64,000 nucleotides of DNA, from assembly GCF_004766055.1 (NCBI RefSeq), contig NZ_SPQR01000002.1, forward strand, positions 1 to 64,000. The letters run 5' to 3'. This document shows, piece after piece, positions 6,444-29,897 of the stretch; position 1 is the stretch's first letter; each line of letters opens with the position of its first letter. Made by a program: the position numbers and the translations under genes. This DNA comes from Desulfosporosinus sp. Sb-LF (lineage in GTDB: Bacteria; Bacillota; Desulfitobacteriia; Desulfitobacteriales; Desulfitobacteriaceae). The notes under the pieces are model-generated. The model made no database searches, was not told the origin of the DNA, and saw only the letters and a list, made by a program, of their open reading frames with translations.

Positions 6444-6520
6444 AAAATTCCTCACCTTCCTCAAAAACATTTAGTATATGCTGAATTCGAAAAACAAAAT
6501 GTATTATTATGGGATTTTTA

Positions 6521-6831: not shown

Positions 6832-7875
6832 TCAATACATTTTGCTATAGTAATTTAAATATTCGCCAGACGTTACCTTTGCCAACCATTCTTCGTTATC
6901 TAGATACCACTGAATTGTTTCACCAATACCCTGCTCAAAAGTATAAGAAGGACACCAGCCCAGTTGCGTGGTAATCTTAGTGTTATCAATGGCATATCGC
7001 CTGTCATGACCTGGCCTATCCTCTACAAAAGTGATCAAAGTCTCCGGCTTATGCAAATTTTCTAGAATCAATTTCACTATTTCGATGTTTGCTTTCTCAT
7101 TATTACCACCAATATTATAGACTTCTCCTATTGCACCTTTGTGTAGCACTGAATCAATGCCGCGACAATGGTCTTTCACATGAAGCCAATCGCGAATTTG
7201 CAGGCCATCACCGTAAACCGGCAGGCTTTTATTATGATTGCTGTTGTTGATTATCAGTGGAATCAACTTTTCTGGAAATTGATAAGGGCCATAATTATTA
7301 GAACATCGAGTAATATTTACTGGCAGTCCAAAAGTTTCGTGATATGCGCGCACTACCATATCCGCACTCGCCTTAGATGCCGAATAAGGACTGTTCGGGG
7401 AAAGTGGCGTTTTTTCAGTAAATATTCCCTCTTTTCCGAGCGAACCGTAAACTTCATCTGTTGAAACCTGCAAAAATTTAAAACCCGTTTTGAATTCTCG
7501 GTTGTACTTATCGCCAGGCTTTAGCTTCCAATGATCTTTTGCAACATCCAAAAGTGTTTGCGTTCCAATAATATTAGTTGTTAAAAAAACCTCTGGATCC
7601 GTAATGCTTCGATCCACATGAGACTCCGCTGCAAAGTTAACAACTGTATCAATGCTGTATTTTGAAAACAGTTGCCTAACCATTTCTCTGTCACGTATAT
7701 CTCCCTTGACAAAAGTATATCGAAAATCCTCTTCGAGATCTTTAAGGTTTTCTAAATTTCCTGCATAGGTTAACGCATCTAAATTAATAATATAATAATT
7801 GTAATTTTCAAGAATATACTTTACAAAATTAGAACCAATAAAGCCCGCGCCGCCAGTTACTAAAATATTTTTCAT
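6832..7875 (-). CDS. rfbB: dTDP-glucose 4,6-dehydratase
   Basis: This cytoplasmic NAD-dependent enzyme converts dTDP-glucose to dTDP-4-keto-6-deoxyglucose. At 347 residues it has the usual family length. The Rossmann motif [10 protein letters not shown] is at residues 8-17. The catalytic STDEVYG region and the YSASK (Tyr-x3-Lys) motif follow, with [11 protein letters not shown] and [10 protein letters not shown] in the substrate half. The start ATG overlaps the rfbA stop as ATGA, with AGAGG upstream, so the two are translationally coupled. The next steps to rhamnose (rfbC, rfbD) are not in the window. A 2,3-dehydratase and two reductases lie just upstream in the same transcript, so the product is likely diverted to a dideoxysugar. 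Confidence 0.96.
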
Positions 7876-8744
7876 CGTCTTTCCTCTACTATCTGAATTA
7901 GGTATTTTCCATAGTCTGTTTTCATCATCGGCTGCGCCAATTCTAGGAGCTTTTCTCTCGAAATATAGCCCATCCTATAGGCAATTTCCTCAATGCAAGA
8001 CACAAATAGCCCCTGTCTCTTCTGAACAATAGAAACAAAATTTGAGGCTTCCAACAATCCCTCGTGAGTGCCCGTATCTAGCCACGCCATTCCACGACCA
8101 AATAGTTCCACCCTCAACTTCTGACGTTTTAGGTATTCGTTGTTAACGGAAGTAATCTCCAGCTCACCTCGGCTTGAGGGTTTGATTTGCTTTGAAAATT
8201 CAATTACATTATTATCATAAAAATATAGTCCTGGGACAACATAGCTGGATTTCGGATGGGCTGGTTTCTCTTCCAGAGATAACACATTCCAGTTTCTATC
8301 AAATTCAACTACGCCAAAATCTATCGGGTTAGGTACATTATAACCAAATATGATTGCGCCTTCCTCTAATTGGGCAGCTTTTTGCAGTACTGCTGAAAAT
8401 CCTCTTCCATGAAAGATATTATCTCCTAAAACTAGCGCAACTTTATCCCCACCAATAAAGTTTTCGCCGATAATAAATGCCTCCGCTAGCCCATTTGGCT
8501 CTGCCTGCACTGCATAGGAAAGGGCCAAACCGATCTGACTGCCGTCTCCCAATAGTTGCTCAAAATCAGGCAAGTCCCTCACCGTTGAAATGATTAGTAT
8601 CTCTCTAATTCCTGCGAGCATCAGAGTTGAGAGCGGATAATAAATCATAGGTTTATCATAAATCGGAAGAACTTGTTTCGAAATTGATTTTGTGATCGGA
8701 TACAGTCTTGTACCTGATCCACCCGCCAAAATAATACCCTTCAT
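7872..8744 (-). CDS. rfbA: Glucose-1-phosphate thymidylyltransferase
   Basis: The enzyme activates glucose-1-phosphate with dTTP to give dTDP-glucose, the entry step for dTDP-sugars. The 290-residue protein starts [16 protein letters not shown], the nucleotidyltransferase signature. It also has [27 protein letters not shown] and the [16 protein letters not shown] motif, all typical of RmlA. GAGAGG lies 7 bases before the ATG. It sits between an SDR reductase gene (25-base gap) and rfbB (4-base overlap) in one minus-strand transcript. Confidence 0.96.
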
Positions 8745-8769
8745 AAAAAGGCCTCTCTCTTTTCATTAA

Positions 8770-9684
8770 TTATTCAGGTTTAAGCACGGAGATCCATTCT
8801 TCGAAACTACGCTGATAGGAGTACTTTAAAATGCTGTCTAGTTTGCTGGAATCAAAAACGGTATCACCAGACTCCAACTTTTCAGCCATTTCGGGCCAGG
8901 GAACAAAATTCACAGAAACATTATATTTCTCGGCAATTTGTCTAGCAACCTGTTCTATACTCAACTCGTCTGCGCCGCCAATATTAAAAACTTCTCCCTC
9001 GCAGCGGTCCTCAAGTGCTCCCATAAGCAGAATGCAGCATAAGTCATCTATATGAGTAAATGTACGTTTCTGGCGTCCATGGCCATAAATATTGATATCT
9101 AACCCGCGTACAGCTCGGCTGATAAAAAATTCAACTGTACCATAAGAATTTGTATTTGCTACCGCGGTACCGTAGGGAAGGCAAATTCTGAAAACGCTGT
9201 ATCTAACCCCAAACATATCATGATACATTTTCAGGTATTGTTCACAGCTGAACTTATTGAGAGCGTAAATAGTTTTAAATTCCTTAGGCGCGTTTTCCAC
9301 CAACCGATGGTTACTGCCTTGGTAGAGAAGTCTGGTGGAAGGTAATATAATCTTTGCGTTTGATTTCTTTTGTCGGTAAATCGTTAACAGATTTAGAAGA
9401 AATTTTTCGTTAACATCAATAAAGGATTCATAATCGTCAAATCCTTGTGAGGTGCCTGTTCTTCCAGAGAATAAAAAAATCAAGTCACAGTCAAAGACAA
9501 TGCTATCCAGAGATGTTTTCGACAATAGGTCAATCTTTTTATAATTTTCGTACCCATCAAACTGATAATCATCCCGATCATACAGATACAGTATATATTT
9601 TGAGCTATCCAGAAATCTGAGCAGATTCCTGGCAATATAACTATTGGCCCCTATCACCACTATTTTTATTGAAATGTCGTTCAT
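8770..9684 (-). CDS. NAD-dependent epimerase/dehydratase, probable dTDP-sugar 4-ketoreductase
   Basis: This is a 304-residue extended SDR protein. A glycine-rich nucleotide site (VVIGANSYIARNLL) is near the N-terminus. STRLLYQG, the catalytic YALNK (Tyr-x3-Lys) and GHGRQKRTFTHIDD follow. I start it at ATG 9684, two bases after the upstream stop, with GGAGAGGGAG as ribosome site; a longer in-frame start would overlap the previous gene. Family membership is clear but substrate is not. Its place beside a 2,3-dehydratase and a Gfo/Idh/MocA reductase suggests the last 4-keto reduction of a dTDP-2,6-dideoxyhexose. A 4-epimerase role is the main alternative. Confidence 0.85.
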   Translation of the reverse strand: MNDISIKIVVIGANSYIARNLLRFLDSSKYILYLYDRDDYQFDGYENYKKIDLLSKTSLDSIVFDCDLIFLFSGRTGTSQGFDDYESFIDVNEKFLLNLLTIYRQKKSNAKIILPSTRLLYQGSNHRLVENAPKEFKTIYALNKFSCEQYLKMYHDMFGVRYSVFRICLPYGTAVANTNSYGTVEFFISRAVRGLDINIYGHGRQKRTFTHIDDLCCILLMGALEDRCEGEVFNIGGADELSIEQVARQIAEKYNVSVNFVPWPEMAEKLESGDTVFDSSKLDSILKYSYQRSFEEWISVLKPE

Positions 9685-9685
9685 T

Positions 9686-10672
9686 TTAAATCTCCCTCTC
9701 CGCGTGATCACGGATCGTTTCAACCAACTTGGCCTGTAGCATCAAAGCTTGCGCCATTTCTTTCTGAAGCTCTTCATCTTTCGTTGCTTGACCAAACAAC
9801 TCAATTGAGCGTCTAAAGTGATTGTCGGCAGGAAGTTTAATCTCTGTTTTTCCTTCTGCAGTTTCTATAGTTACAACTGGCTGCAGACCTGAAGGGGCGG
9901 TAAAAATCCGGTTAGTATAAAGCTTTCCACTACTGCCAAAGGCTTCTAAATTGCATTGATAATAGCAATCCATACCAAAAGCTCCCTGTAACACAAGACC
10001 CGCCGAGTTTTCAAAAGTCGCATTACCAAACATATCCACATTATAATCTGCCAAATGATTAGTTTTCGCAGCGCGAACTTGAATTGTGTTCCCTAAAAGG
10101 AGAGTAGCCAGTTTAACTACGTAACCCCCAGCATCCAACAGCGCACCGCCGCCCAATGCGTCGTTATAGCGAAAATCGTTTTTTGTCCGTAATGGAAAGC
10201 CAAAATGAGCCCTTAATAACCTGATATCTCCAATTTTACCGTCCTTTAGCATGTTTCGAATCGCCGCCATCTGGGAATGGTATTGAAACATATAATTTTC
10301 CTGTAAAACCAATCCATTCTTCGAAGCTATGGTCACGAGTTCTGCGCTCTGCTTATAACTAACCGTTGACGGCTTCTCTACAAAAACATGCTTGCCCTTC
10401 TCTAAAGCATTCTTTGCCCATTGATAATGCAGAGCGGGGGGAAGTGGAATATAAACCGCATCCACTTGGGGGCTTTCCAAAAGCTCATCATAGCTATCAA
10501 AAACGGGTACGTTGAAATTCTTTGCAAAGCTCTTTCTTTTTTCGGTGCTAAGGCTCGCAACTCCTCCACATTGGTAAGTTGGATTTTCTAATAATGCAGG
10601 AAGAAACATTCTATAGGCAATGTCTGCACCGCCTAATACTCCAATATTTATAATTCTCACCTCTCTGGACAC
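9686..10672 (-). CDS. Gfo/Idh/MocA oxidoreductase, probable dTDP-sugar 3-ketoreductase
   Basis: At 328 residues, it has an N-terminal Rossmann domain (IGVLGGADIAYRMFLPAL) and the family motif EKPSTVSYKQSAELV with the catalytic-type Glu-Lys-Pro. A C-terminal alpha/beta substrate domain contains GGALLDAGGYVV. Members such as OleW reduce the 3-keto group made by NDP-hexose 2,3-dehydratases, and the neighbouring dehydratase makes that role likely here. The start is uncertain. GTG at 10672 lacks a good ribosome site, while AGAGAGGTGAG occurs just downstream, so the true start may be a few codons later. Confidence 0.88.
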   Translation of the reverse strand: MSREVRIINIGVLGGADIAYRMFLPALLENPTYQCGGVASLSTEKRKSFAKNFNVPVFDSYDELLESPQVDAVYIPLPPALHYQWAKNALEKGKHVFVEKPSTVSYKQSAELVTIASKNGLVLQENYMFQYHSQMAAIRNMLKDGKIGDIRLLRAHFGFPLRTKNDFRYNDALGGGALLDAGGYVVKLATLLLGNTIQVRAAKTNHLADYNVDMFGNATFENSAGLVLQGAFGMDCYYQCNLEAFGSSGKLYTNRIFTAPSGLQPVVTIETAEGKTEIKLPADNHFRRSIELFGQATKDEELQKEMAQALMLQAKLVETIRDHAEREI

Positions 10673-10707
10673 GTAATTGGCAACTACGATTTCTAAGTAA
10701 TTAAACT

Positions 10708-12099
10708 TTAGACTTCTAACAGGGCCAGTAGATTTCTAAGCTGTATATTCACACAATTATTAACTTGAATGAGCATATTTAAAGCATAGTAATCCGCCCA
10801 AAAATATCCATCCGGTAACAAAGGCACAGCATGCTTATCTATTTCCAAAATAATGTTGTCATTTTGTTCGTGATAAAAGCGGCCTCCTTCTTCCGATAAA
10901 ATCACTTGATACCGGATATTCTCTATCTCCCTTTTTTTATCTAGAAATAGACGATCAATTACGTTCATCTTGTCTAGACGGTCTGTTGATTCCATCTGCA
11001 CAGTCGGGCCGAGCTCAATTTTATCGAAGCAACCTACCTCAGACCTTGCTCTAACAAGAAATTTTTCGACTCCATTATCATTGCAAACAAACAGTCCAAA
11101 GGTTGCCATACCCGTTGCTTCAAATAGTGGTTGTGTCCATTCTTTAACTTCTCGTCCCTCGATAGAAATATTACAAAATACAACTTTAAAAGGATAATCA
11201 TGTTGGCATACATACTCCTGGCCTCTCATATCCCATGTTGTTAAAGCATCCAGTGGTACTAGTTTTATCCTGCTTTCCTCAAACATTTTGTAGTTGTTAA
11301 TATAATGATAGATTTCAGGTAACGCTTCACTGCAGTTTCCTTCAAACACGGAGCGAAATAAAACTTCATTTCGGAAAAGTGTTCTCATTCGTTTCATTTC
11401 CCAGTCGGAAAAACGATGTGTACAAAACGGAATGCAAGAAATTACTGTACGGGTATCCATATTCACTAAATTGTCATGCTTCATCAATTCTTTAAGCTGG
11501 CCGAGTGTCATCCATTTGTGGCTTGGTAATACCTCAACCTCATCGTCAACCTTAATCATGACATTACGATTACGTTTTTTTAAAAAGCGTGAAGACTGCT
11601 CAGATTGAATTTGGTCTACAATTACGTCATGATTCGCAGTGTGAATAAAATACTCCAAATAAGCAGGCTGAGCTCCTCCGTGCTTGCGAGTAAAATTACT
11701 TTTTGTTGCTTGAATTGTTGGCGATAACTGGATTTTGTTTATATTCCCCGGTTCAATTTTTGCTTGCATCAAAAAATTCAGAACCCCGTTGATCTCTTTG
11801 CAAAGGATTCCCAAAAAACCGATTTCGTCCTGAAGGATCACAGGTTGCTCAAAAATAACTGTGTCTCCCTTGGAACAAATCAAACCTTTAATTTGAAAAA
11901 AACTTTGATTTTTATTAACAATAATACCCTCTTTTTGATCGTAAAACCAAAAGTCGCTCTCTTCCAGTGCAACTTTTTGAATACTCATGGCAATCTCTTG
12001 GTTACGCTGACGGACCCATTCCAAAATATTCTCAGTCGTATTCACATTACCAGCAATATTCGCCCATGACTCTACTATTTGGATAATTGTTTTATTCAT
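10708..12099 (-). CDS. NDP-hexose 2,3-dehydratase family protein
   Basis: The 463-residue protein is built from two related halves, as usual for this family. LMQAKIEPGNINKIQLSPT (about residue 110) is echoed by LVRARSEVGCFDKIELGPT (about residue 345), and VLPSHKWMTLGQL by a similar PLLPDGYFWADYYAL. Other family-like motifs are FLKKRNRNVMI and RFYHEQNDNIILEI. Characterised members (the OleV, TylX3 and EryBVI type) act on dTDP-4-keto-6-deoxyglucose, removing the 2-hydroxyl to give a 3,4-diketo sugar that a reductase then traps. AAAGG precedes the ATG by 9 bases. The gene is followed by that reductase type after 35 bases. This is the key gene for reading the locus as a deoxysugar pathway. Confidence 0.88.
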   Translation of the reverse strand: MNKTIIQIVESWANIAGNVNTTENILEWVRQRNQEIAMSIQKVALEESDFWFYDQKEGIIVNKNQSFFQIKGLICSKGDTVIFEQPVILQDEIGFLGILCKEINGVLNFLMQAKIEPGNINKIQLSPTIQATKSNFTRKHGGAQPAYLEYFIHTANHDVIVDQIQSEQSSRFLKKRNRNVMIKVDDEVEVLPSHKWMTLGQLKELMKHDNLVNMDTRTVISCIPFCTHRFSDWEMKRMRTLFRNEVLFRSVFEGNCSEALPEIYHYINNYKMFEESRIKLVPLDALTTWDMRGQEYVCQHDYPFKVVFCNISIEGREVKEWTQPLFEATGMATFGLFVCNDNGVEKFLVRARSEVGCFDKIELGPTVQMESTDRLDKMNVIDRLFLDKKREIENIRYQVILSEEGGRFYHEQNDNIILEIDKHAVPLLPDGYFWADYYALNMLIQVNNCVNIQLRNLLALLEV

Positions 12100-12117: not shown

Positions 12118-12681
12118 TTATTTATCTTTTTCTGGCCTATACAATATGAAAGCTATCGGTACTGCTATCATAATATAAATTTCAACTAATAAATCTGGCC
12201 GTGTTAAAGGCCTAAATCTTTTTTCAGCACCCCAATGCCAAGTGAACTTTTCCCAGTCGGTATCCTTATAGAGGTTAACTGTTTCCTTAACCTCGCCAAA
12301 TTGGATATCCACTTTCCCGGAACCTCGCTGCTTCACAAATTCGATATCTAGGCTTTCTAATGCTTTTAGGTTCACAATAATTCCAGCTGGTGAATTGGTA
12401 TCATAACACACCAAGAGATCACCATCTCTTTTCCAAGGTGTTTCTAATGGTATCGCCCTTAGGTCTACCTTATTATTGGCGTTCGTTGTAATTGAGACAA
12501 TGCGCACCTCTGTACCGAAAGATGCGTAATCCTTTGTGTCAGTGGCAATAATTTTTACTTGTTGATCCTGTACGTTCTTGACCATAAAAATAGGATGCAG
12601 CCAAGTCACGGTACTCAAGAATGTTATAATTAATGAAAGAATGGCAATATATAAGATCTTCAATAACTTAATTTGTCTCAT
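12118..12681 (-). CDS. Hypothetical membrane protein with two end helices
   Basis: The 187-residue protein is not recognised. One hydrophobic helix lies at about residues 9-29 and another at about 164-182, with about 130 polar, beta-rich residues between them that should face outside. The basic tail YRPEKDK follows the second helix. GGGAGA lies 6 bases before the ATG, and the start overlaps the upstream GT2-GT4 gene by 14 bases, so the pair is coupled. The outer domain (aromatic DWEKFTWHWG near residue 140) could bind a carbohydrate or help a membrane glycosyltransferase. That is a guess from context. Confidence 0.7.
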   Translation of the reverse strand: MRQIKLLKILYIAILSLIITFLSTVTWLHPIFMVKNVQDQQVKIIATDTKDYASFGTEVRIVSITTNANNKVDLRAIPLETPWKRDGDLLVCYDTNSPAGIIVNLKALESLDIEFVKQRGSGKVDIQFGEVKETVNLYKDTDWEKFTWHWGAEKRFRPLTRPDLLVEIYIMIAVPIAFILYRPEKDK

Positions 12682-15049
12682 AACTTTCTCCCGCTTTATC
12701 TCGGAATAAATTCCTCATCTTACAGAGTATTTTACCAGTCCGAGAATAATCCATAAAATGTCGGTACTTCTGTATAATTTTCCAAGTACGCATATTGTAA
12801 ATCTCCTCCAAGCGAGCCTCTGCTTCCGATAAATTCAGAAAATGTGAACTCTCTGTTCGTTGCCCCCGCACACACTGTTGTTCATAGAGCTTTCTATACC
12901 ATTCACGTGCAGCCCAAACTTCTTCGCTTTCTTGATCTTTCCCTACATACTCTGTAAAAAGCGTAATATAGTCTTTCACGATCTCCGATACGGTCGCTAA
13001 ATGCTCTGCCATTTCCCGCCTCTTCTCCAAGGCATGTTTATCATAGATAAGGGATTCAAATAATCTTTCTATAGAAAAAATCGTTTTCTCCATGGAAAAA
13101 GAATCTCCTATTTTGCGGAAGCAGGCTCTGCTCATCTGTCCATAAGTATCTTTGTCTGACAAAATTTTCTCAATCGCATCCGCATAATCCTTCACTTCTA
13201 ACTCTGGGAAGTCTCGACTGTCAAAATGCTCCGATTCTGATTGCCTGCACGGGATAAGCTTCCCCGTTTCATCCGTTACCAACTCGTACTGGCTTCCTAC
13301 ATTCCCACTGACCACCGGTTTTCCCATTTGCATCGCATCAAAAGTAGTGATTGCAATTCCCTCTTTAATAGAGCAAATCAGCAAAATGTCACACGCCTTA
13401 TAATAAGGCCGTATCTCTTCCTGCCGCCCCACACAATACACAGTATTTTCCAGATGTTCAGTGATGATTTTATTCTTAAATTCATCAAACTGATAACCGT
13501 CCCCCACAACCAAGAAAGCAATGTTTTCGATGCGTTTACGCGCTTCCTTTGCAATTTCCAACATCAAAAATGGACGCTTTTCTGGCGCAATACGGCACAA
13601 ATACAACACGGTGGGGCGACTTTCATCGATCCCGCATTTAATCTTTAAGCCCTCGCAACTTATCACGTTGGGATTCATATATTCTTGGTCAACCCCTGTA
13701 TAAATTGTCTTCACTTTTTTGCTACTCTTACCATATTTATTTATCATAATGCCTCTTGAATGCTCATTGGTGGTCACAGTTTTATCCAAAACACAATCGG
13801 TCACCCGAGAGATACGAGCATAGCCACCGGCTCTCCAAAAATCCATATCCGCATGAATGCAGTCGACAATCGCAATTTCTGGAAATTCCTTACGGAGCCA
13901 CGGCAGTATGTAATATGAATAGTATGAATTCACTATATAAATAACGTCAATTTCCCTTGATTTAATAAAATAGCTGACAAACTCGGCGAAATTCTGTACG
14001 TCTAAAAAATTCGGAAGCTCGAAAATATCCGTCACATACTCCTCAAAGCGTTGCCTCCAATCGCTTTCTCCTGATTCAGTTGTCAATATGCTCATTTCGA
14101 ATTTGCTTTTATCAATTCTACGCACGACCTCTAAATTAAATAAAGACGCGCCGCCCATTGCCATCCATGGAATCAGCATCATCACATGGATTTTATTATG
14201 ATGCTGATAAAGCTTTCTGTTCCATTCGGACAATACTGGTCTACTGAATAAATTCACTTTGTTATGTCGGGGATATTGTATGGCGCGAATACTCGTGTCA
14301 ACAGTAGCTGCAGCGGCATCAATCAAACGCCTTGACTTATGGGCAACTTCAGCATCCGTCAGCACCTTAGACAGAACTCCGTCATCCAACCTTCGATACC
14401 AAAAACCATAAAGCTTCACATGTACCGGATATCTGCTTTTACCCATTAGTCTAAGCCAGGCACACCAATCCTCATTATAATTTCTTTCAGATTCATCATA
14501 GAACCCAATTTTCTCAAAATGATCTTTGCGAATAGCAGCCGTACAAACCAGCACATTTTCATGCTTCATTCCTTCTGGGGAAAAATCTTTTCTCCAAATA
14601 TATTCCTGATTCTGAAAACCTACACAATCTGTATAACTCCATGTTGCATCCGGATTGAAATAAAGTCCAAAATAAAGGCACTCTAAAAAAGTCGGGACAA
14701 TCAAGTCATCTCCGTCTAGGGGAATTACGATATTAGTACACGCGTGTTTAATTCCCATATTACGGGCAGTTGCAATCCCACCATTGTCTTTGTGGTAGAC
14801 TTTGATGCGGGATTCCTTCTTTGCAAAGGTTTCAAGAATTTTAATATCTTCCTCACTAGTACTCCCGTCATCCACAATAATCCACTCAAAATATGGAAAA
14901 GTTTGATTCATCACACAGTTAAATGTTTGTTCAAAATACTTTCCTGCATTATAATATGGAGTAATCAAACTCACAAGCGGTTCACCGGAACAGTCTATAT
15001 CCCTGTTTAGAAGCTGCTTTCCAGGCTTTTTCGAGAAATCAAACTGCAT
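12668..15049 (-). CDS. Bifunctional GT2-GT4 glycosyltransferase
   Basis: A 793-residue cytoplasmic fusion. Residues about 25-250 are a GT2 domain with SLITPYYNAGKYFEQTF, WIIVDDGS and the LDGDD metal-site motif. Residues about 270-650 are a GT4 (GT-B) domain with LIPWMAMGGA, VLYLCRIAPEKRP, VVGDGYQF and the nucleotide-sugar site EGIAITTFDAMQMGKPVV. A helical tail of about 130 residues follows. Such fusions add two successive sugars to a lipid-linked chain. The start ATG follows GAGGG by about 9 bases. It is a close paralogue of the gene at 16590-18827, and a pyruvyltransferase gene separates the two. Confidence 0.9.
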   Translation of the reverse strand: MQFDFSKKPGKQLLNRDIDCSGEPLVSLITPYYNAGKYFEQTFNCVMNQTFPYFEWIIVDDGSTSEEDIKILETFAKKESRIKVYHKDNGGIATARNMGIKHACTNIVIPLDGDDLIVPTFLECLYFGLYFNPDATWSYTDCVGFQNQEYIWRKDFSPEGMKHENVLVCTAAIRKDHFEKIGFYDESERNYNEDWCAWLRLMGKSRYPVHVKLYGFWYRRLDDGVLSKVLTDAEVAHKSRRLIDAAAATVDTSIRAIQYPRHNKVNLFSRPVLSEWNRKLYQHHNKIHVMMLIPWMAMGGASLFNLEVVRRIDKSKFEMSILTTESGESDWRQRFEEYVTDIFELPNFLDVQNFAEFVSYFIKSREIDVIYIVNSYYSYYILPWLRKEFPEIAIVDCIHADMDFWRAGGYARISRVTDCVLDKTVTTNEHSRGIMINKYGKSSKKVKTIYTGVDQEYMNPNVISCEGLKIKCGIDESRPTVLYLCRIAPEKRPFLMLEIAKEARKRIENIAFLVVGDGYQFDEFKNKIITEHLENTVYCVGRQEEIRPYYKACDILLICSIKEGIAITTFDAMQMGKPVVSGNVGSQYELVTDETGKLIPCRQSESEHFDSRDFPELEVKDYADAIEKILSDKDTYGQMSRACFRKIGDSFSMEKTIFSIERLFESLIYDKHALEKRREMAEHLATVSEIVKDYITLFTEYVGKDQESEEVWAAREWYRKLYEQQCVRGQRTESSHFLNLSEAEARLEEIYNMRTWKIIQKYRHFMDYSRTGKILCKMRNLFRDKAGESYETN

Positions 15050-15073: not shown

Positions 15074-16573
15074 CTAAATTTCATATCTCTTTAATTTAAT
15101 AATCTTTTTTACCAAACTATCGTTTTTAATACGATTAAATTTATATTCGACCTTGACGAGTTTGTTCTTAAGTTCTGCGATCTCTTCTTCCTCTCGGGAA
15201 ATAAGTATTTCTTGTTTTTCACGAAGGGTCTTTTCCATATTCCACTGTTTTTCCAACCATTCTTTATCCTTTAAGACCTGACTTAAATAGATATCCTTTT
15301 CTTCGCATAATGATTTCTGTGCATTCCACTGTTCTTCCAACCACTCTTTATCCTTTAAGACCTGACTTAAATAGATATCCTTTTCTTCGCGTAATGACTT
15401 TTGAGCATTCCACTGCTCTTCTAGCCATTTTTTGGCACGTTCCAACTCATTAATCCAATCTTTCAGTGAAGATATGGCAATTGTCTTTTTCTCATCCTCT
15501 TTTTGATAATTGTCGACTTGTTCGAGCAACCATTTCTTTTCATTCATGAGTTCATGAATATACTTTACATTATTGTCAATTACAGACTGATATTTATTGG
15601 TCCCTCCCGCAATTATACTTTTTTGCCACGAAGCTTTTTCCAGCCAAAATGATTTAAAATCAATAATCTCTGGTAGGCTCTTATCAATGAGAGATACCAT
15701 CTTCACACTATTGACAAATCGCTCGCACTTTTCAATTAAAGCTTTTCTAGTTGATAAATAATCTTCCTTATTGGGAAGCGGACTCGCAAAATCATAATAA
15801 TAGACATCATCCATAAACTTCTGCTTTGACGTATAATTCAAAAAAGGCAAGAAGTTAGAAAAGCGGTCCGAATTGACATTCTGATTAATCAGTAGAACCG
15901 GCGTGCCCAATGCTAAGCAAGGGAGTGCACAGTGCAGTCTCGACGTAACAACGCAAGCTGCTCCTTGATATAAGTTCAGAAGAGCTTGTACTCTCTCAAA
16001 ACGTGTTTCCCATGAAATCGGATGCTTATTATAGTTCACTGTTTGACTGATCATTTTTATTTCTCTATCTTTTACGCAAGCTTTTACTTTACCTGCGATC
16101 TCATCATCTACATCTACTAGGCATATATAATTACCCTGAACAATCTCGGGATTCCTTGACAAGGTTAAGGTTAAACAACCCGATAAGTAACTAGATATCT
16201 GTTTTTCCTTCAGTAATTGAAGGGTACTATCATCCCGACAGCCTACCGGTCCATAGTTCTTTAGATATTCCTTTCCCATTCCTTCCAAAAAATTTGATCC
16301 TATCCCTAAATAATCGGAATAGTCTACGTTCGAAAAATGTATAGACAGCAAAAGTGGATAAATGTATGGTGACGGTGGCCAATTATATCTCCTATACATA
16401 TACCATGCATTCATTATTGTTGCAATTTGTTCTCTCTTTTCTGGTACAAACAAGTCCAAACTTTCGCGATCAATCATGTAGTCCACCTGAGGCAAAAAGC
16501 GCTTAGCCGCAAACGACTGAATATCATCCCCAATATTCGTAGTTTCCTGAAAAACAAGTAATCCGTATTTCAT
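15074..16573 (-). CDS. Polysaccharide pyruvyltransferase-family protein with coiled-coil tail
   Basis: The 499-residue protein begins MKYGLLVFQETTNIGDDIQS. A GT-B-like pyruvyltransferase domain (PF04230 type) spans about residues 1-280, with VTSRLHCALPCLALGTPVLL containing the conserved Ser-Arg-x-His. Residues about 330-480 form a charged coiled coil that includes two near-identical 28-residue repeats. Family members transfer pyruvate to hexoses, making acidic ketals, though some homologues are glycosyltransferases. GGGAGA lies 9 bases before the ATG. It sits between two GT2-GT4 fusion genes, so it may work in a complex with them, the coiled coil acting as ruler or scaffold. If it is a true pyruvyltransferase, the polymer carries negative charge. 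Confidence 0.82.
   Translation of the reverse strand: MKYGLLVFQETTNIGDDIQSFAAKRFLPQVDYMIDRESLDLFVPEKREQIATIMNAWYMYRRYNWPPSPYIYPLLLSIHFSNVDYSDYLGIGSNFLEGMGKEYLKNYGPVGCRDDSTLQLLKEKQISSYLSGCLTLTLSRNPEIVQGNYICLVDVDDEIAGKVKACVKDREIKMISQTVNYNKHPISWETRFERVQALLNLYQGAACVVTSRLHCALPCLALGTPVLLINQNVNSDRFSNFLPFLNYTSKQKFMDDVYYYDFASPLPNKEDYLSTRKALIEKCERFVNSVKMVSLIDKSLPEIIDFKSFWLEKASWQKSIIAGGTNKYQSVIDNNVKYIHELMNEKKWLLEQVDNYQKEDEKKTIAISSLKDWINELERAKKWLEEQWNAQKSLREEKDIYLSQVLKDKEWLEEQWNAQKSLCEEKDIYLSQVLKDKEWLEKQWNMEKTLREKQEILISREEEEIAELKNKLVKVEYKFNRIKNDSLVKKIIKLKRYEI
15239..15440. repeat. 84-bp tandem repeat encoding coiled-coil heptads
   Basis: Two full 84-base units (from about 15239 and 15323) and a partial third unit encode KEWLEEQWNAQKSL-type segments. 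A 46-base tract at 15261-15306 is identical to 15345-15390. The 28-residue period is exactly four heptads, so unit gain or loss would keep the coil in register. Confidence 0.85.
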
Positions 16574-16589: not shown

Positions 16590-18827
16590 TTAAAACATTT
16601 TATTTAACTTCAGTTTAAATGCCAATTTTATTATTCTGGAACCCCATTTTGAATTTGCAAGCCGCATCAATTCATTTTTCGCATCCGAGCCATAGCTGTT
16701 TTTATTAATATTTTCATGTTTTTCTACCTCACTAAAAACTGTCAAATAGTCATTTACAAATGAATCGAGTCGTTTTAGCTCGTCTGAACGTTCATCTCTT
16801 CTAGCTATCATTTCTGGATTTTTAACCAAATTTTTAAATTCCTTCTCAAGTGTCTTAATCATTAATTTTGTAGAAAAACCTTCTTTAATCTTCTGTTGAC
16901 ATGCAATGCTCATCCGAAGATACCTGGGTTTATTTTCCAACACTTCCCTTATAGCATTGACATAATCCAATACCTCTTCCTCAGGAAAATTTCTACTATC
17001 AAAATCTATTTCTTCATTCTGTCTGAACGGAATCAACATGCCTGTTTCTTCATTCACCAACTCATATTGGCTACCAACATCAGCACTAACCACGGGCTTA
17101 CCCATTTGCATGGAGTCAAATGTCACGATCGATAGCCCTTCTTTCAAAGAACAGATCAAGGAAAGATCACATGCCTTATAATAAGGACGAATATCCTCTT
17201 GTCTACCTGCACAGTATACAGTATCACTCAAGTTATACCTTTGAATATGTTGCTGGAACTCCTTGAACTGACGACCATCACCAACTACCAAAAAGGCGAT
17301 GCTAGGAATCTTTTTTCGTGTCTCCCTCGCAATTTCAAGCATAAGAAACGGTCTTTTTTCTGGTTCGATACGGCACAAGTAGAGAACTGTCGGACGACTT
17401 TCTATAATACCGTACCGAGCTTTTATGCCCTCGTCGGAAACAAGGTCGGGATTAAAGTATTCCTCATCAACACCAGTATAAATCACCTGTGTTTTTTCCT
17501 TGGATTTCCCGTATTTATTTAACATGATATTTCTTGTGTACTCATTGGTAATAAAAGTTTCATCAATGACGTAGTCTACCGCAGCAGAGAGTCTCGTATA
17601 ACCGCCACTCCTCCAAAACTCCAGATCTGCATGAATGCAATCTACAATTGCTACCTTCGGAAATTCCTTTCTAATCCACGGCAGCAAATAATAGCCGTAA
17701 TATGAATTGCTAAGAAAAATCAAATCTATTTCCCTCGACTTTATAAAATAGCTGACAAACTCAGCGTAATTTTCGACGTCCAAAAAGTTCGGAAGCTCGA
17801 AAATATCGGTTACATATTCCTCAAACCGTTGCCGCCAAAAGCCGTCACCTCGAACCGTGGTGAGAATACTGATTTCGAAGCGTGATCTGTCCAAATTTCG
17901 CACTACATCCAAATTAAACAGGTCTGCTCCTCCCATTTCCAACCACGGAATTAGAAACATAACATGAATTTTGCAATGTTCCTGAAATACCTTTTGCTGT
18001 TTATGGAAAACTATCGGTGCACGAAACATATTAACGCTACTGTTATAGGGATATTCTTTCGCAGTCACTGGCACTTTAACAGTAGCGGCGGCTTGTGCAA
18101 TCAGCTTCTTATTCTGTTGAACGATTTCATCATTATTGAGCACTTCCGACAGCACTCCGTTGTCTTGCCTCCGATACCAAAATCCATATTGACGGATATG
18201 AACCGGATATTTCCCCAAGCCCAGCAACTTCAGCCATGCGAACCAGTCTTCATTATATTGTTTCGCGCATTCTGAGTAAAAGCCGATTTCCTCGAAATCT
18301 TTCTTTCGGATTGCAGCACAACATACTAGTATATTTTCGCGTTTCATCACGTCAGAGGAAAAATCTTTTCTCCATAGATATTGTTGTCCCTGAAAACCAA
18401 GACAGTCGGTATAGCTCCAAGATGCGTGAGGATTAAAATACAGTCCAAAATATAAAAGTTCTAGATATGTGGGTATAATGAGGTCATCCGCATCCAAAGG
18501 CACCACTATATCCGTCGTACTTTTTTGAACTCCTAAATTTCGAGCGGAGGCGATCCCACCGTTATTCTTACGGTAAACCTGAATGCGATTGTCCAACTCA
18601 GAAAACTTCATTAATAATGAAATATCCTCCTCGTTTGTACTCCCATCATCCACAATGATCCACTCAAAGAACGGAAAAGTCTGACTAACAACACTGTAAA
18701 AGGTTTGCTCAAGATATTTTCCTGCATTGTAATACGGAGTAATCAAACTGAGCAAAGGGGTACCCTTCGTATTCAGATTTCGATTGAGACAGATTTTTCC
18801 TGGTTCTTTTGTAAAATCAAAGGCCAT
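16590..18827 (-). CDS. Bifunctional GT2-GT4 glycosyltransferase (paralogue)
   Basis: A 745-residue fusion with the same layout as the product of 12668-15049. The GT2 domain has SLITPYYNAGKYLEQTF, IIVDDGS and PLDADD. The GT4 domain has LIPWLEMGGADLFNL, VLYLCRIEPEKRP and EGLSIVTFDSMQMGKPVV. The helical tail is shorter. I start it at ATG 18827 (MAFDFTKEPGK): GGGAGGAAA lies 6 bases upstream and the N-terminus then matches the paralogue, whereas an in-frame start 24 bases earlier lacks a ribosome site. It begins the GT part of the transcript just after the ABC exporter genes. The pair likely arose by duplication and may add different disaccharides. Confidence 0.9.
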   Translation of the reverse strand: MAFDFTKEPGKICLNRNLNTKGTPLLSLITPYYNAGKYLEQTFYSVVSQTFPFFEWIIVDDGSTNEEDISLLMKFSELDNRIQVYRKNNGGIASARNLGVQKSTTDIVVPLDADDLIIPTYLELLYFGLYFNPHASWSYTDCLGFQGQQYLWRKDFSSDVMKRENILVCCAAIRKKDFEEIGFYSECAKQYNEDWFAWLKLLGLGKYPVHIRQYGFWYRRQDNGVLSEVLNNDEIVQQNKKLIAQAAATVKVPVTAKEYPYNSSVNMFRAPIVFHKQQKVFQEHCKIHVMFLIPWLEMGGADLFNLDVVRNLDRSRFEISILTTVRGDGFWRQRFEEYVTDIFELPNFLDVENYAEFVSYFIKSREIDLIFLSNSYYGYYLLPWIRKEFPKVAIVDCIHADLEFWRSGGYTRLSAAVDYVIDETFITNEYTRNIMLNKYGKSKEKTQVIYTGVDEEYFNPDLVSDEGIKARYGIIESRPTVLYLCRIEPEKRPFLMLEIARETRKKIPSIAFLVVGDGRQFKEFQQHIQRYNLSDTVYCAGRQEDIRPYYKACDLSLICSLKEGLSIVTFDSMQMGKPVVSADVGSQYELVNEETGMLIPFRQNEEIDFDSRNFPEEEVLDYVNAIREVLENKPRYLRMSIACQQKIKEGFSTKLMIKTLEKEFKNLVKNPEMIARRDERSDELKRLDSFVNDYLTVFSEVEKHENINKNSYGSDAKNELMRLANSKWGSRIIKLAFKLKLNKMF

Positions 18828-18874
18828 GCTTTTCCTCCCATTTTTCAACAAACGTTATGCTGTTAGAACCACTT

Positions 18875-19606
18875 CTACTCTTCCATGTACTTTTTACAAA
18901 CCACATCAACCATATCGTTCATTACTATCCGTCCTTTTTCCAACCAAATAACTCTTGTACATAATTCTCGAACCTGCTTAATGGAATGGGACACAAACAA
19001 GACTGTCGCACCGTTTCCAATTATTTCGTTCATGCGCTTCTGACATTTTTCCTGAAATTTATAATCTCCGACACCAAGGATTTCATCTACAATTAAAATA
19101 TCTGGCAAACTTGCGGTTGCAATAGCAAACCCCAAACGAGCCACCATACCAGAGGAATAGTTCTTTAAAGGTGAATCAACGAAATCCCATAATTCTGAGA
19201 AATCCATGATTCCTTCAAACATTCCTCTTATTTGACGTCTGCTATATCCAAGCACAGTGCCATTTAAAAAAATATTTTCTCGGGCCGATAAATCCATGTC
19301 AAACCCGGCACCTAATTCAATTAGCGGTGCTACCGTGCCATAAATGCTCACAGCACCCTTTGTTGGTTTCATGATCTGCGCAATTAGTTTCAACAAAGTA
19401 CTTTTACCGGAACCATTTAGTCCAACAATTCCAACCGCCTCTCCTTTTTTCACATTAAAAGTAACATCCCTTAACGCCCAAAATTCTTCAAACATCAGCT
19501 GCCTTTTTAATAACTTTACCACGTATTCTTTTATATTATCGACGCGCTCGGAGCTCCGATTATACATCATGGAAACACGGTCGACTTCTATCATATTCCC
19601 CTCCAT
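18875..19606 (-). CDS. Polysaccharide ABC exporter, ATP-binding protein (Wzt/TagH type)
   Basis: This 243-residue ATPase pairs with the permease encoded just upstream. Walker A is GLNGSGKST (residues 62-70), the signature is YSSGM (150-154), and Walker B is ILIVDE with Glu175. The switch His is in FVSHS. The N-terminal segment before Walker A and ELGAGFDMDLSARENI are typical of the polysaccharide/teichoic acid exporter subfamily. It ends right after the nucleotide-binding domain, so it lacks the C-terminal carbohydrate-binding domain of some Wzt proteins. Export therefore probably does not depend on a chain-end cap recognised by this subunit. GGAGGAGG lies 6 bases before the start. Confidence 0.95.
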   Translation of the reverse strand: MEGNMIEVDRVSMMYNRSSERVDNIKEYVVKLLKRQLMFEEFWALRDVTFNVKKGEAVGIVGLNGSGKSTLLKLIAQIMKPTKGAVSIYGTVAPLIELGAGFDMDLSARENIFLNGTVLGYSRRQIRGMFEGIMDFSELWDFVDSPLKNYSSGMVARLGFAIATASLPDILIVDEILGVGDYKFQEKCQKRMNEIIGNGATVLFVSHSIKQVRELCTRVIWLEKGRIVMNDMVDVVCKKYMEE

Positions 19607-19618: not shown

Positions 19619-20404
19619 CTAAATATATAAAATAAATTTATCCTGATTGCGGTAGAAAACAAATAATCCAACAATTAAGAAGCCCACACCTATCCCAAAA
19701 CAAGTGAGGTTCTCCCCCATTGAAGGAACCATATTATATAGTACGACATTTCGCAGATACGTAATAAAGTACACCATAGGATTTATTTTTAAAACGATAT
19801 CAAGCTTTCCTTGCAACATGGATATCGGATAAAAAATCGGTGTCAAATACATCCAAGCAAGCGTAACCACACCATAGAGATGCGCGGTATCCCGAAAAAA
19901 GACCATAACCGTGGCAAGAATAAGGCCCAGACCAAGAGCAAACATAATAATATATGCCATTACTATTATTGACAATATCATTGTTACATGAAATGAAACG
20001 CCCGTAAAAACCATAACTAACATCATAGCAATATATGAGAAAAAAAGATTTACTACGCTCGATAAAACTTTTGACATTGGGAACAAATATTTAGGAATAT
20101 AAACCTTTTTAATCAAATTTCCGCTTCCAGTGATAGAATAGAGCGCGTTTGTAGTAGACTCAGCAACAAATGCAAATAAAATGTTTCCCGTAAAAAAGTA
20201 AATGGCAAAATTTTCAATGTCGAACCGGAATAGATGCGAAAACACCAATGTTATTACTGCCATCATTAGAATCGGGTTCAACAGCGTCCATAAAAGACCC
20301 AAAAACGAACGACGATACCGAATTTTGATATCTCTTACAACCAGTTCATAAAGTAAATCTTGATACTTAACAAAGCCAGAAAACATAACTTTTAATTTAA
20401 TCAT
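19619..20404 (-). CDS. Polysaccharide ABC exporter, permease (Wzm/TagG type)
   Basis: This ABC-2 permease of about 261 residues has six predicted helices. The DLLYELVVRDIKIRYRRSFLG segment before helix 1 and LAWMYLTPIFYP in the middle are both hallmarks of polysaccharide exporters. It should move an undecaprenyl-linked glycan across the membrane, powered by the ATPase encoded 12 bases downstream. ATG at 20404 is chosen; an in-frame TTG at 20419 overlaps the stop of the previous gene (TGATTG) and is an alternative. An ABC route means the chain is finished inside the cell before export. Confidence 0.94.
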   Translation of the reverse strand: MIKLKVMFSGFVKYQDLLYELVVRDIKIRYRRSFLGLLWTLLNPILMMAVITLVFSHLFRFDIENFAIYFFTGNILFAFVAESTTNALYSITGSGNLIKKVYIPKYLFPMSKVLSSVVNLFFSYIAMMLVMVFTGVSFHVTMILSIIVMAYIIMFALGLGLILATVMVFFRDTAHLYGVVTLAWMYLTPIFYPISMLQGKLDIVLKINPMVYFITYLRNVVLYNMVPSMGENLTCFGIGVGFLIVGLFVFYRNQDKFILYI

Positions 20405-20419
20405 AATTCCCAATTCCAA

Positions 20420-21455: not shown

Positions 21456-22574
21456 TTACATGTTTTTATAATAAATAGCGCAAATCCGTTCTTTCGCCTT
21501 TTCAAGAGAATACTGCTCCGCTTTTTCAATATTCTTTATAGATATTGTCTTAAGTGTGTCCTTGGACCTAAATATGTCATACATTGCGCGTGCAAGACCT
21601 TCCGCATCCCCCGGCAAATACAGACAGTTATTTCTTTTGTCGTCAATTAACTCAATATGTCCACGTATTCGTGAAGCGACAATAGGCAAACCGCAGGCCA
21701 TTGCCTCAATAATATTTAGTGGCAAGCCCTCACTTATGGAACTGCTTACCGCCATGTCACACATCGGATAAACCTCTTCCATTCCGTCTATGTGCCCAGG
21801 AAACATAACTCTTTCTAGTATTTCGAGTTCTTCTGCGAGGGCTAAATTTTCTTTTAAAAGCAAACCGTCTCCAGGTAGTAAAAGACGTCCGCTCGGTACA
21901 TGATTTAGAAAAATCGCAAATGCTTTTAATAGCTCTCTGTGGTTTTTCCTCCTGCTCATTTCAGCAGGATATATGACTAAGAAATCATTCTCATGAATTC
22001 CGTAGCACTGCCTCATACGTCGTTTCTTAACGTTATCGTACGGTTTATAGCGTTCCAAATCAACTCCCATGCCTGGTATCAGCTCTACGTCACCCGAGCA
22101 AAGCTTGTATTTTTGAGCAAGGGCAAAATCCTCATAATTCATTGCAATTACACAATCTGTTACGCCCGCACAGATTTTCTCGGGAGGCAGGTACTTGATC
22201 CAGTTTGCAAACGGCCCACCGTTCCAAAAAAAATAACCGTGAGACGTATATATGACTCTTGTATTCCTCTTACCAGCAAGAATTATAGCTGCCCGCACTA
22301 TTGCACCTGCCAATGTAGTGTGTATACTGATGATCTCGAAGTGATTTTGCTCAAGAATATTCTTGACAGTGTTGATCGCGAGCAAATTCTTTGCACTTAA
22401 AATGTTTTTTTCAAACGCAATATCCCATTTCATATCAACATACGGAAAGCTCATGCCTCCATGCGACGCAAGGTGTACCTCAAACCCATTATCCTTGAAA
22501 AATTTCAAATACGGTATATGAAAGTTCTTTATATGGATATCATTGGAAGCACAGTACAAAACTTTTTTTTTCAT
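21456..22574 (-). CDS. GT4 family glycosyltransferase
   Basis: A 372-residue GT-B enzyme. The N-terminal acceptor domain starts KKKVLYCASNDIHIKNFHIPY and contains VIYTSHGYFFWNGGP, as in capsule/EPS enzymes of the EpsD type. The C-terminal donor domain has VIYPAEMSRRKNHRELLKAF, LLLPGDG and SISEGLPLNIIEAMACGLPIV. The gene lies between galE and a GT2 gene. The 217 to 229 bases before the next gene show no terminator. UDP-GlcNAc or UDP-galactose type donors are plausible given galE alongside, but not shown. Confidence 0.9.
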   Translation of the reverse strand: MKKKVLYCASNDIHIKNFHIPYLKFFKDNGFEVHLASHGGMSFPYVDMKWDIAFEKNILSAKNLLAINTVKNILEQNHFEIISIHTTLAGAIVRAAIILAGKRNTRVIYTSHGYFFWNGGPFANWIKYLPPEKICAGVTDCVIAMNYEDFALAQKYKLCSGDVELIPGMGVDLERYKPYDNVKKRRMRQCYGIHENDFLVIYPAEMSRRKNHRELLKAFAIFLNHVPSGRLLLPGDGLLLKENLALAEELEILERVMFPGHIDGMEEVYPMCDMAVSSSISEGLPLNIIEAMACGLPIVASRIRGHIELIDDKRNNCLYLPGDAEGLARAMYDIFRSKDTLKTISIKNIEKAEQYSLEKAKERICAIYYKNM

Positions 22575-23673: not shown

Positions 23674-25056
23674 CTACATTGCTCCTTTACCAAGTAGCAC
23701 AACAGGGACAGTCCGGAAGATTATCTTCAAGTCAAAAGCGAGTGACCAGTTATGAATATAAAAGAGGTCCATTTGAATCCGATCTTCATAACTCACGTCG
23801 TTGCGCCCACTCACTTGCCATAAACCCGTAAGACCTGGTTTCACTCTAAGGATCATCTTTCCATGTGTACCATACCTAGCGATTTCTGCTGGCACAATGG
23901 GACGAGGTCCGACAAAACTTAGGTCACCTTTTAGAATATTGAACAACTGTGGCAATTCATCCAAGCTAAGCTTTCTCAGATATTTACCCAGTAGGGTTAT
24001 TCTCGGGTCATTATCTATCTTGTAATTATCATGATAATCTTTATTGATCTCCTCATTTTCAAGCAAAGCTGCAAGTTGTTTATCCGAGTCCACAACCATG
24101 GTCCTGAACTTATAAATTCGTACTTTCTTTCCATCTAGCCCTAATCTTTCTTGGGTAAATATGACGGGTCCGACCGAACTGAGCTTTACCATTATCCAAA
24201 CAAGCACCAATAGCCAAGAGATAAGGATTATTCCGACGGCAGCCAGGATAACATCCATCACCCTTTTTAACCGTTTTGAGACACCATCAACAATTAAGTC
24301 TTGAGGTCCAAAAATAAGAATCCCTTTGTAGTTGATTGTCTTTAGGGGTATCGATAATAACCTGCTAACAGACGGTACAATATATAGTGGGATGTAATTA
24401 AGTTCGCAGTAGGCTATAAGTGGCTCTAGTTGACCAACACGTTCTTCATACACTAACATGCCCAGATCCCTTGGGCTTACTACGCGCAAAGCGCTTGCTA
24501 ATTCGAGATGATTTTTTACGATATCCTCAATTTTCATGTTTAGGGCTGTCTTTGCTACTACCCTGAGTCCCATATCTCTGGCAAGTTTCTCTAGAAGGTT
24601 ATCGGCACATGATTCGAAGCCAATAGCCACTAGTGGAAGTTTAGCCTCATCTCCCAATTTCAACTTATAAACTTTCGCCAGAAAATACCTTACTATAATA
24701 GCCAAGGAAAAATTAACCACAAAAAAGACAGTAAAATAAATCCGAGAATAGCTCACATTACGCAAGTAAAAGGACAAAACGTAAAAAAATGCAGCACTAT
24801 ATATTAGTGAGCGGAAATAAATCTGTGGCCTAACTTTTAATAACTCCGATGTCTCATAATTCCCTGATAGATATAATAAGCCCAAAAAGATAATACCAAT
24901 CATCGCTAACATTATTAAATATGCGTTTATACTTATGACTGATATATCATTCAAGAATTTCATATACCCTACTAAGAGGCCACTAATGGTATAGACCATT
25001 ATATCAGAGATAAAGAACTGGATACTTAGTCGGGCTACTCTTCCAGAGTGCAACAA
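23674..25056 (-). CDS. Polyprenyl-phosphate glycosyl-1-phosphate transferase (priming enzyme)
   Basis: A 460-residue membrane enzyme that starts polymer synthesis by moving a sugar-1-phosphate from a nucleotide sugar to undecaprenyl phosphate. Four or five N-terminal helices (residues about 10-130) and a Rossmann-like middle are followed by the catalytic Bac_transf domain: KRVMDVILAAVG, FTQERLGLDGKKVRIYKFRTM, LDELPQLFNILKGDLSFVGPR and PGLTGLWQVSGR. The start is TTG at 25056 with GGAGGT 8 bases upstream, so the non-ATG start is well supported. It is the first gene of the long locus. It resembles WbaP/WcaJ-type enzymes; the sugar is unknown. Confidence 0.94.
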   Translation of the reverse strand: MLHSGRVARLSIQFFISDIMVYTISGLLVGYMKFLNDISVISINAYLIMLAMIGIIFLGLLYLSGNYETSELLKVRPQIYFRSLIYSAAFFYVLSFYLRNVSYSRIYFTVFFVVNFSLAIIVRYFLAKVYKLKLGDEAKLPLVAIGFESCADNLLEKLARDMGLRVVAKTALNMKIEDIVKNHLELASALRVVSPRDLGMLVYEERVGQLEPLIAYCELNYIPLYIVPSVSRLLSIPLKTINYKGILIFGPQDLIVDGVSKRLKRVMDVILAAVGIILISWLLVLVWIMVKLSSVGPVIFTQERLGLDGKKVRIYKFRTMVVDSDKQLAALLENEEINKDYHDNYKIDNDPRITLLGKYLRKLSLDELPQLFNILKGDLSFVGPRPIVPAEIARYGTHGKMILRVKPGLTGLWQVSGRNDVSYEDRIQMDLFYIHNWSLAFDLKIIFRTVPVVLLGKGAM

Positions 25057-27639: not shown

Positions 27640-27664
27640 AGTTACCCAATATATAATTGTATTA

Positions 27665-28846: not shown

Positions 28847-28863
28847 TTTAAAGACTCCTTACC

Positions 28864-29895: not shown

Positions 29896-29897
29896 TT

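What the first reader, a model, noticed from the sequence alone, without database searches (positions are those of the whole stretch)
15074..16573. Pyruvyltransferase-like enzyme with an expandable heptad-register coiled coil
The C-terminal third carries an 84-base tandem repeat, with a 46-base identical tract, encoding exactly four heptads per unit. Coiled-coil extensions act as chain-length rulers in some polymer synthases (such as WbdD with WbdA). An expandable coil on an enzyme in an ABC-exported glycan locus, where the exporter ATPase lacks its own chain-end-binding domain, raises the idea that this protein measures or terminates the chain.
Basis: inference. Interest (0 to 1): 0.5.

Follow-up and report, generated by a model that had tools for sequence, protein, structure and literature searches.

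The report
Sugar-capping enzyme on repeat-built stalk
A bacterial surface-sugar locus encodes a probable pyruvate-adding enzyme with a long helical tail built from copied 28-residue units; the tail may act as a spacer or measuring rod for the sugar chain, but nothing here shows that it measures anything.

Summary
The gene at 15074-16573(-) and its 84-base tandem repeat are real. Residues 13-230 match PF04230 (E 7.5e-17); the model's best VIA match is the pyruvyltransferase Pvg1p (Z 14.6), and the motifs reported for WbbZ are present. The last third is predicted helical, ending in a short basic amphipathic helix. The gene and its neighbours (two GTs, ABC permease, ATPase without an end-binding domain, two dual GTs) recur in two Clostridia MAGs at 28-58% identity. 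There the tail has five KxW positions 28 residues apart; in the window the spacings are 35, 28, 28. Most other close relatives have tails of 87-105 residues. So the tail varies by units whose length is a multiple of seven. The 'heptad register' is weaker than claimed: inside the window's units it is not significant. The ruler idea is open: in Klebsiella O1, which also has a CBM-less exporter and a pyruvyltransferase, the cap does not set length (PMC11231755 passages). Best reading: a membrane-anchored, stalk-mounted pyruvyltransferase acting before export; a length ruler is possible (about 0.25).

The parts
15074..16573 (-). PF04230 pyruvyltransferase-family protein, 499 aa, with helical repeat tail
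   Evidence: ORF; Pfam E 7.5e-17; AF2 mean pLDDT 66.5
15884..16537 (-). catalytic GT-B-like domain (aa 13-230); NxGD (N13,G15,D16), RxxxT (R113,T117), R212-L213-H214
   Evidence: motifs from PMC10629545 section 9; invariant in the 4 rows of A1 and present in all 13 close homologues
15125..15484 (-). long helix aa 364-483 (about 18 nm if a single straight helix)
   Evidence: AF2 secondary structure, low pLDDT over much of it; length arithmetic
15350..15433 (-). 28-aa unit 1 (aa 381-408)
15266..15349 (-). 28-aa unit 2 (aa 409-436), young duplicate of unit 1 (75 of 84 bases identical)
15182..15265 (-). 28-aa unit 3 (aa 437-464), diverged (49 of 84 bases identical to unit 2)
15239..15421 (-). 84-base tandem array as called by TRF (2.2 copies)
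15080..15118 (-). C-terminal basic amphipathic helix aa 486-498, possible membrane anchor
   Evidence: AF2 helix; SLVKKIIKLKR moment rank 7 of 489 in the protein
16590..18851 (-). dual glycosyltransferase (GT2 + GT4 domains), GTa
12668..15049 (-). dual glycosyltransferase GTb, 62% identical to GTa
18875..19606 (-). ABC exporter ATPase, 243 aa, no C-terminal carbohydrate-binding domain hit
   Evidence: Pfam (E up to 0.01); NCBIfam's first three rows are two teichoic-acid export ATPases (TagH type) and galactan Wzt NF050108 (244 positions), each below its cut-off
19619..20419 (-). ABC-2 permease
   Evidence: PF01061
20420..21238 (-). GT2 glycosyltransferase
21456..22574 (-). glycosyltransferase of the conserved block (28-29% identity to the MAG counterparts); GT4-like by reading, not scanned against Pfam
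6832..12099 (-). NDP-sugar genes: RmlA/RmlB-like (named from sequence, recalled), epimerase-like, Gfo/Idh-like, NDP-hexose 2,3-dehydratase

Best explanation
The protein is a cytoplasmic pyruvyltransferase-family enzyme (Pvg1p/WbbZ-like GT-B fold) that most likely adds a PEP-derived pyruvyl group to the glycan made by the neighbouring dual glycosyltransferases before ABC export. Its C-terminal third is an extended, probably oligomeric alpha-helical stalk ending in a basic amphipathic helix that binds the membrane, so the active site sits at the end of a spacer of roughly 20 nm. The spacer evolves by adding units of 28 residues (one spacing of 35), multiples of seven that keep the helix face. 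Shown here: family, best fold match, motifs, unit duplication, synteny; predicted: helix and amphipathic end. Inferred: activity, oligomer, membrane binding, position of pyruvylation. That spacer length sets glycan length is possible (my estimate 0.25) but not shown.
For: PF04230 E 7.5e-17. VIA top row Pvg1p 5ax7 Z 14.6, rmsd 3.9, 249 aligned; WbbZ 6x1l Z 12.0, rmsd 4.4, 213 aligned. NxGD, RxxxT and RLH conserved in 13 of 13 close homologues, matching the WbbZ motifs in PMC10629545 (section 9). Helices 306-358, 364-483, 486-498. Units 28 aa apart in 3 of 3 proteins from GT-GT2-permease-ATPase-dualGT loci. All spacings counted are multiples of 7: 35, 28, 28 in the window and 28 four times in each MAG (the two MAGs are not independent). 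5 of 7 changed codons between the young copies are synonymous (P 0.013). Basic C-termini: net charge of the last 20 residues at least +3 in 11 of 13 close homologues, against 3 of 18 window ORFs, this gene among the 18.
Against: Other GT-B enzymes and UDP-GlcNAc 2-epimerases score Z 11-13, close behind Pvg1p and around 6x1l, and Foldseek's first row is a 2-epimerase, so fold alone does not fix the reaction. AF2 confidence is low in the tail (10-residue means 38-71) and the five models differ (mean pLDDT 66.5 to 41.8). Heptad pattern within the window's units is not significant and the plain coil score of the window's tail is reached by 21 of 200 shuffles. No oligomer could be modelled. The C-terminal moment ranks only 7 of 489, and in the two MAG proteins the best late 11-mer ends 15-16 residues before the C-terminus. 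G522 lacks a basic end (net -2).
Confidence: 0.6

Rival explanations
1. Chain-length ruler as in WbdD (an extension of the best reading, not exclusive of it): the cap stops elongation and the stalk sets how long a chain must be to reach the active site, so each added 28-residue unit (about 4.2 nm) lengthens the polymer by a step.
For: Same order of parts as WbdD: N-terminal capping domain, coil, C-terminal amphipathic helix. Stalk about 18-23 nm if straight against the ~20 nm reported for WbdD (PMC5082667 passages). WbbZ addition shortens O1 polymer in vitro in a PEP-dependent way (PMC10629545 passages). Number of 28-residue positions conserved (5 and 5) between two MAG species whose cores are 82% identical.
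Against: ATPase lacks the CBM that reads the cap in the terminated systems described in PMC11231755. In the CBM-less O1 system the pyruvyl cap is not required for length. A homologue beside an ABC exporter has a 97-residue tail. No glycan data.
Confidence: 0.25
2. Scaffold: the tail is an oligomerisation and docking rod that ties the enzyme to the dual GTs or the exporter; its length is loosely constrained and the repeats drift.
For: Homologues have the same core with tails of 87-105 residues, 178-213 residues, or a GT4 fused in. Tails of G1196, the paralogue G084_p and G083 show no clear similarity to the window's coil (467, 194 and 58 of 1000 shuffles as good). Trp/Tyr-rich units are poor canonical coil.
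Against: Exact 28-residue spacing in two lineages and an unchanged number of units between the two MAG species suggest the length matters. The G522 tail does resemble the window's coil (1 of 1000 shuffles, 7 of 1000 heptad-keeping).
Confidence: 0.35
3. Repeat polymorphism without function: recent replication slippage in a permissive helical tail of a decorating pyruvyltransferase.
For: One young duplication; the 46-nt tract lies in one part of the unit; tail length varies among homologues.
Against: 5 of 7 changed codons between the copies are synonymous; 28-residue units also occur in the two MAG proteins.
Confidence: 0.2

Closest known systems
WbbZ, Klebsiella pneumoniae O1 pyruvyltransferase (PDB 6x1l; PMC10629545)
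   Same: Core with NxGD, RxxxS/T and H motifs; works with a dual-GT polymerase and a CBM-less ABC exporter
   Different: The 6x1l chain in the structure library has 260 residues and the passages read mention no repeat stalk on it; too distant for a hit in the PDB sequence search
WbdD, E. coli O9a chain terminator (PMC3482155, PMC5082667; passages)
   Same: N-terminal capping domain, C-terminal extended coil, C-terminal membrane-interacting end
   Different: Kinase/methyltransferase instead of a pyruvyltransferase core; exporter with CBM; trimer and ruler role shown by experiment
Pvg1p, S. pombe pyruvyltransferase (PDB 5ax7)
   Same: Best structural match of the core by VIA (Z 14.6)
   Different: Yeast enzyme acting on N-linked glycans; no such stalk in the 333-residue chain
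K. pneumoniae ORF7-O4 and ORF6-O7 terminators (PMC11231755, passages)
   Same: Capping domain followed by a coil in ABC-exported glycan loci
   Different: Kdo transferase and methyltransferase-kinase; O4 exporter with predicted CBM

Membership tests
PF04230 polysaccharide pyruvyl transferase | profile match above the curated cut-off | tested here: met
   62.6 bits against cut-off 25.3
PF04230 polysaccharide pyruvyl transferase | NxGD, Rxxx(S/T) and H motifs as listed for WbbZ | tested here: met
   N13/G15/D16, R113/T117, H214 (motif list)
PF04230 polysaccharide pyruvyl transferase | PEP-dependent pyruvyl transfer | not testable with these tools
   biochemical assay needed
WbdD-type coil-ruler terminator | extended coiled coil C-terminal to the capping domain | tested here: inconclusive
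   Helices 306-358 and 364-483 predicted at low confidence; coil score high only in parts of 351-489, matrix recalled, 21 of 200 shuffles as good with the plain matrix; heptads in the units not significant
WbdD-type coil-ruler terminator | C-terminal membrane-associated amphipathic helix | tested here: inconclusive
   Basic amphipathic helix 486-498 predicted; membrane binding not testable
WbdD-type coil-ruler terminator | exporter ATPase with carbohydrate-binding module | tested here: not met
   243-aa ATPase with no such domain hit at E up to 0.01; 245, 246 and 251 aa in three relatives, likewise at E up to 0.001
WbdD-type coil-ruler terminator | coil length sets chain length | not testable with these tools
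   needs mutants and glycan sizing
WbdD-type coil-ruler terminator | recruits the polymerase at the C-terminus | not testable with these tools
   no complex prediction or binding assay available

The most novel reading that the evidence does not exclude
A Gram-positive-type, CBM-less ABC glycan pathway in which a pyruvyl cap is placed by an enzyme on a stalk whose length, and so the glycan's length, is reset in 28-residue steps by tandem duplication: a genetically adjustable ruler that works without an end-reading exporter.
Probability: 0.2. Interest if true: 0.7.

Novelty: new variant of a known kind. Interest (0 to 1): 0.4.

Why it matters
Coil rulers are established in Gram-negative O-antigen assembly with end-reading exporters (PMC11231755, PMC5082667, passages). 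A pyruvyltransferase core on a unit-built stalk beside an exporter without that domain would show either that the ruler works without the checkpoint or that such stalks serve another purpose. PMC10629545 notes that pyruvate-based chain termination has candidates but no validating biochemistry yet (passage); this gene is a further candidate, with discrete units that can be counted.

Tried and rejected
A widely shared coil module on other enzymes: I expected one from memory. The coil profile A2 matched only the window's gene in 82 class genomes (E up to 0.01) and only the known G084 gene in 397 genomes of the MAG family (E up to 1e-4), so I dropped this. The coil alone found nothing else in its own genome at E up to 10.

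Mobile-element origin: no phage match, no relative confirmed in viral contigs, two plasmid matches to the core only (26-29% identity over 70-72%).

Solved homologues by sequence: none at E up to 0.1. A second AF2 model of the core alone came out worse (pLDDT 58.3) and was not searched.

Significance of the 46-base tract: with few differences spread over 84 bases, such a tract is not strongly unusual (my estimate, no call), so I do not use it as evidence of gene conversion.

Rows dropped: G865 (L021) was missed by my ORF filter and is not in the tail counts or the tree; four distant homologues (G684 twice, G799, G863) were left out of the '13 close homologues'. Only three papers of the listings were opened for their locus content, plus one review; and listings gave nothing further that I used.

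Full report
OBSERVATION. The ORF at 15074-16573 (minus strand, 499 aa) is present. The 84-base tandem repeat spans 15239-15421 (2.2 copies, 92% matches), two full copies are 93% identical, and the longest identical tract is 46 nt. In reading frame the units are residues 381-408, 409-436 and 437-464. Units 1 and 2 share 75 of 84 bases, with 5 synonymous and 2 non-synonymous codon changes; units 2 and 3 share 49 of 84, with 5 and 15. So one duplication is young and one older.

HEPTADS. Residues 330-484 show a hydrophobic period of 3.50 that none of 2000 shuffles reaches (1 of 2000 on the Kyte-Doolittle scale). This is inflated by repetition. When the 28-residue repeat is kept and positions are permuted, 976 of 5000 permutations do as well in the window, and 200 and 402 of 5000 in the two MAG orthologues. 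The unrepeated part 330-380 is clearly heptad-like (1 of 5000), while 437-484 (819 of 5000) and unit 381-408 alone (1074 of 5000) are not. A COILS-type score, with a matrix I recalled, gives P >= 0.5 to 82 residues within 351-489 (107 with Trp scored as Tyr, with 0 at 406-434), and P below 0.005 in the catalytic part; its mean over the tail is reached by 21 of 200 shuffles with the plain matrix and 2 of 200 with Trp as Tyr (L004: 3 and 0; L006: 2 and 2). The tail is therefore probably a long helix that is coiled-coil at both ends, with Trp/Tyr-rich, less canonical units between.

THE ENZYME. Pfam gives PF04230 at residues 13-230 (62.6 bits, cut-off 25.3); NCBIfam gives nothing. It is the only PF04230 gene found in its genome. 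The AF2 model (4-row alignment A1, mean pLDDT 66.5, five models 66.5 to 41.8) has a GT-B-like core and helices 306-358, 364-483 and 486-498. Foldseek ranks a UDP-GlcNAc 2-epimerase first, Pvg1p second and the WbbZ entry 6x1l third; VIA-align puts Pvg1p first (Z 14.6, rmsd 3.9, 249 aligned) and 6x1l at Z 12.0 (rmsd 4.4, 213 aligned), among 2-epimerases and other GT-B enzymes at 11-13. NxGD, RxxxT and H, the motifs listed for WbbZ in PMC10629545 (section 9 read), are at N13/G15/D16, R113/T117 and H214.

THE LOCUS. On the same strand lie two dual GTs (62% identical to each other), an ABC permease, a 243-aa ATPase without an end-binding domain, and a GT2; a further GT; NDP-sugar genes including a 2,3-dehydratase; a PF02397 initiating transferase (23674-25056) and a PF04932 ligase/polymerase-like protein (4581-6470). 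The ATPase resembles teichoic-acid export ATPases and the galactan exporter ATPase NF050108 without reaching their cut-offs.

RELATIVES. Nothing matched in the 59 other genomes (28 of the same genus, E up to 0.001), the 81 others of the class (E up to 1e-5) or the 397 others of the phylum (alignment query, E up to 1e-20); these sets overlap. The adjacent dual GT GTa likewise has no match at E up to 1e-60 in the 81 other class genomes (at most 13 candidates scored per genome). The genome-contig scan, by six strict peptide patterns, found three relatives: L004 and L006 (uncultured Eubacterium MAGs) and L005 (a Lachnospiraceae MAG). In L023 and L024, wider stretches of the genomes of L006 and L004, the order GT, GT2, permease, ATPase, dual GT, dual GT, PF04230 protein is kept at 28-29, 41, 46-47, 56-58, 39-45 (56 over one 177-aa fragment) and 37% identity, except that the window has the PF04230 gene between its two dual GTs. 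The patchy distribution suggests horizontal transfer (inference); G+C over 4-24 kb of the window is 0.376-0.422 against 0.433-0.520 at 40-64 kb, a weak sign. Further searches with the core matched 4 of 397, 8 of 13 and 2 of 391 genomes at E up to 1e-20.

TAIL EVOLUTION. In the two MAG proteins KxW-type positions recur every 28 residues (5 positions each); in the window the spacings are 35, 28, 28. The MAG cores are 82% identical to each other and 47% to the window. Of the four full units of L004, three match the same-numbered unit of L006 best and the fourth ties, so the count has been stable there. Similarity between the window coil and the MAG coils exceeds plain shuffles (0 of 1000 for both) and, less clearly, heptad-keeping shuffles (23 and 3 of 1000); without unit 2 the figures are 0 and 4, and 10 and 26. 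G1196, the paralogue G084_p and the G083 tail show no such similarity in the full comparison (467, 194, 58 of 1000), but the G522 tail does (1 of 1000; 7 of 1000 heptad-keeping). Of 13 close homologues, 3 have the long unit-built tail (178-213 residues after F286), 9 have 87-105 residues and 1 is fused to a GT4. G1196, beside an ABC permease and ATPase, has 97. In a tree of the cores the window's protein branches outside the group of MAG ABC proteins, G083 and the paralogues (support 82/83 for that group; several long branches flagged), so the unit-built tail is either old and lost in some lines, or gained more than once. I cannot tell which.

MECHANISM. Compared with WbdD (passages of PMC3482155, PMC5082667, PMC11231755), the order of parts is the same and the scale similar (about 18-23 nm if straight). 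But the terminated systems described there have a CBM on the exporter that reads the cap, and this locus does not. The Klebsiella O1 system combines a dual-GT polymerase, a pyruvyltransferase and a CBM-less exporter; there the cap is not needed for chain length (PMC11231755 passages), although WbbZ shortens the polymer in vitro (PMC10629545 passages). I therefore commit to a stalk-mounted pyruvyltransferase acting before export, and give the length-ruler reading about 0.25.

LITERATURE. A search for pyruvyltransferase with coiled-coil, ABC transporter, polysaccharide and terminat- found 3 papers holding all terms (two of them opened); 'polysaccharide pyruvyl transferase' + 'coiled coil' + 'tandem repeat' found none, and a six-term Firmicutes/Wzt/coil search none. 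I found no description of this arrangement in those searches or in the passages read; subscription journals are mostly not covered, the WbdD ruler paper (PMC4650267) and the Glycobiology 2019 survey of terminators were not held.

Noticed in passing
window 12668-15049 and 16590-18851: The two dual glycosyltransferases are 62% identical to each other but only 41-45% to those of the MAG loci, and the two in G082 are 51% identical to each other: the pair seems to have been duplicated or homogenised separately in each lineage.
   Followed up: partly
window 6832-12099: Genes for an NDP-2,6-dideoxyhexose-like sugar (NDP-hexose 2,3-dehydratase PF03559 at 10708-12099, with RmlA/RmlB-like neighbours) in a surface-glycan locus; pathway assignment recalled.
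   Followed up: no
window 12118-12681: 187-aa protein with no Pfam or NCBIfam hit at the limits used and hydrophobic segments near both ends, next to the dual GT.
   Followed up: no
window 25373-41951: Four proteins with cell-wall-binding CWB2 repeats (PF04122), one joined to a trypsin-like protease and one to an amidase, beside the glycan locus.
   Followed up: no
L005 5983-8556: Fusion of the same pyruvyltransferase core with a GT4 and a different C-terminal tail in one 857-aa protein.
   Followed up: partly
L031 6526-7731, L032 6705-7913: A second, short-tailed paralogue of the enzyme: a match of this kind was found in 8 of the 13 genomes of the MAG genus (tail length measured in 7 of the 8). 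In the two stretches read it lies between an epimerase-like gene and a 1230-aa protein, near a nucleotidyltransferase-like gene (name recalled).
   Followed up: no
L023 13321-15621: The second dual GT is split into two ORFs (177 and 566 aa) in this MAG.
   Followed up: no
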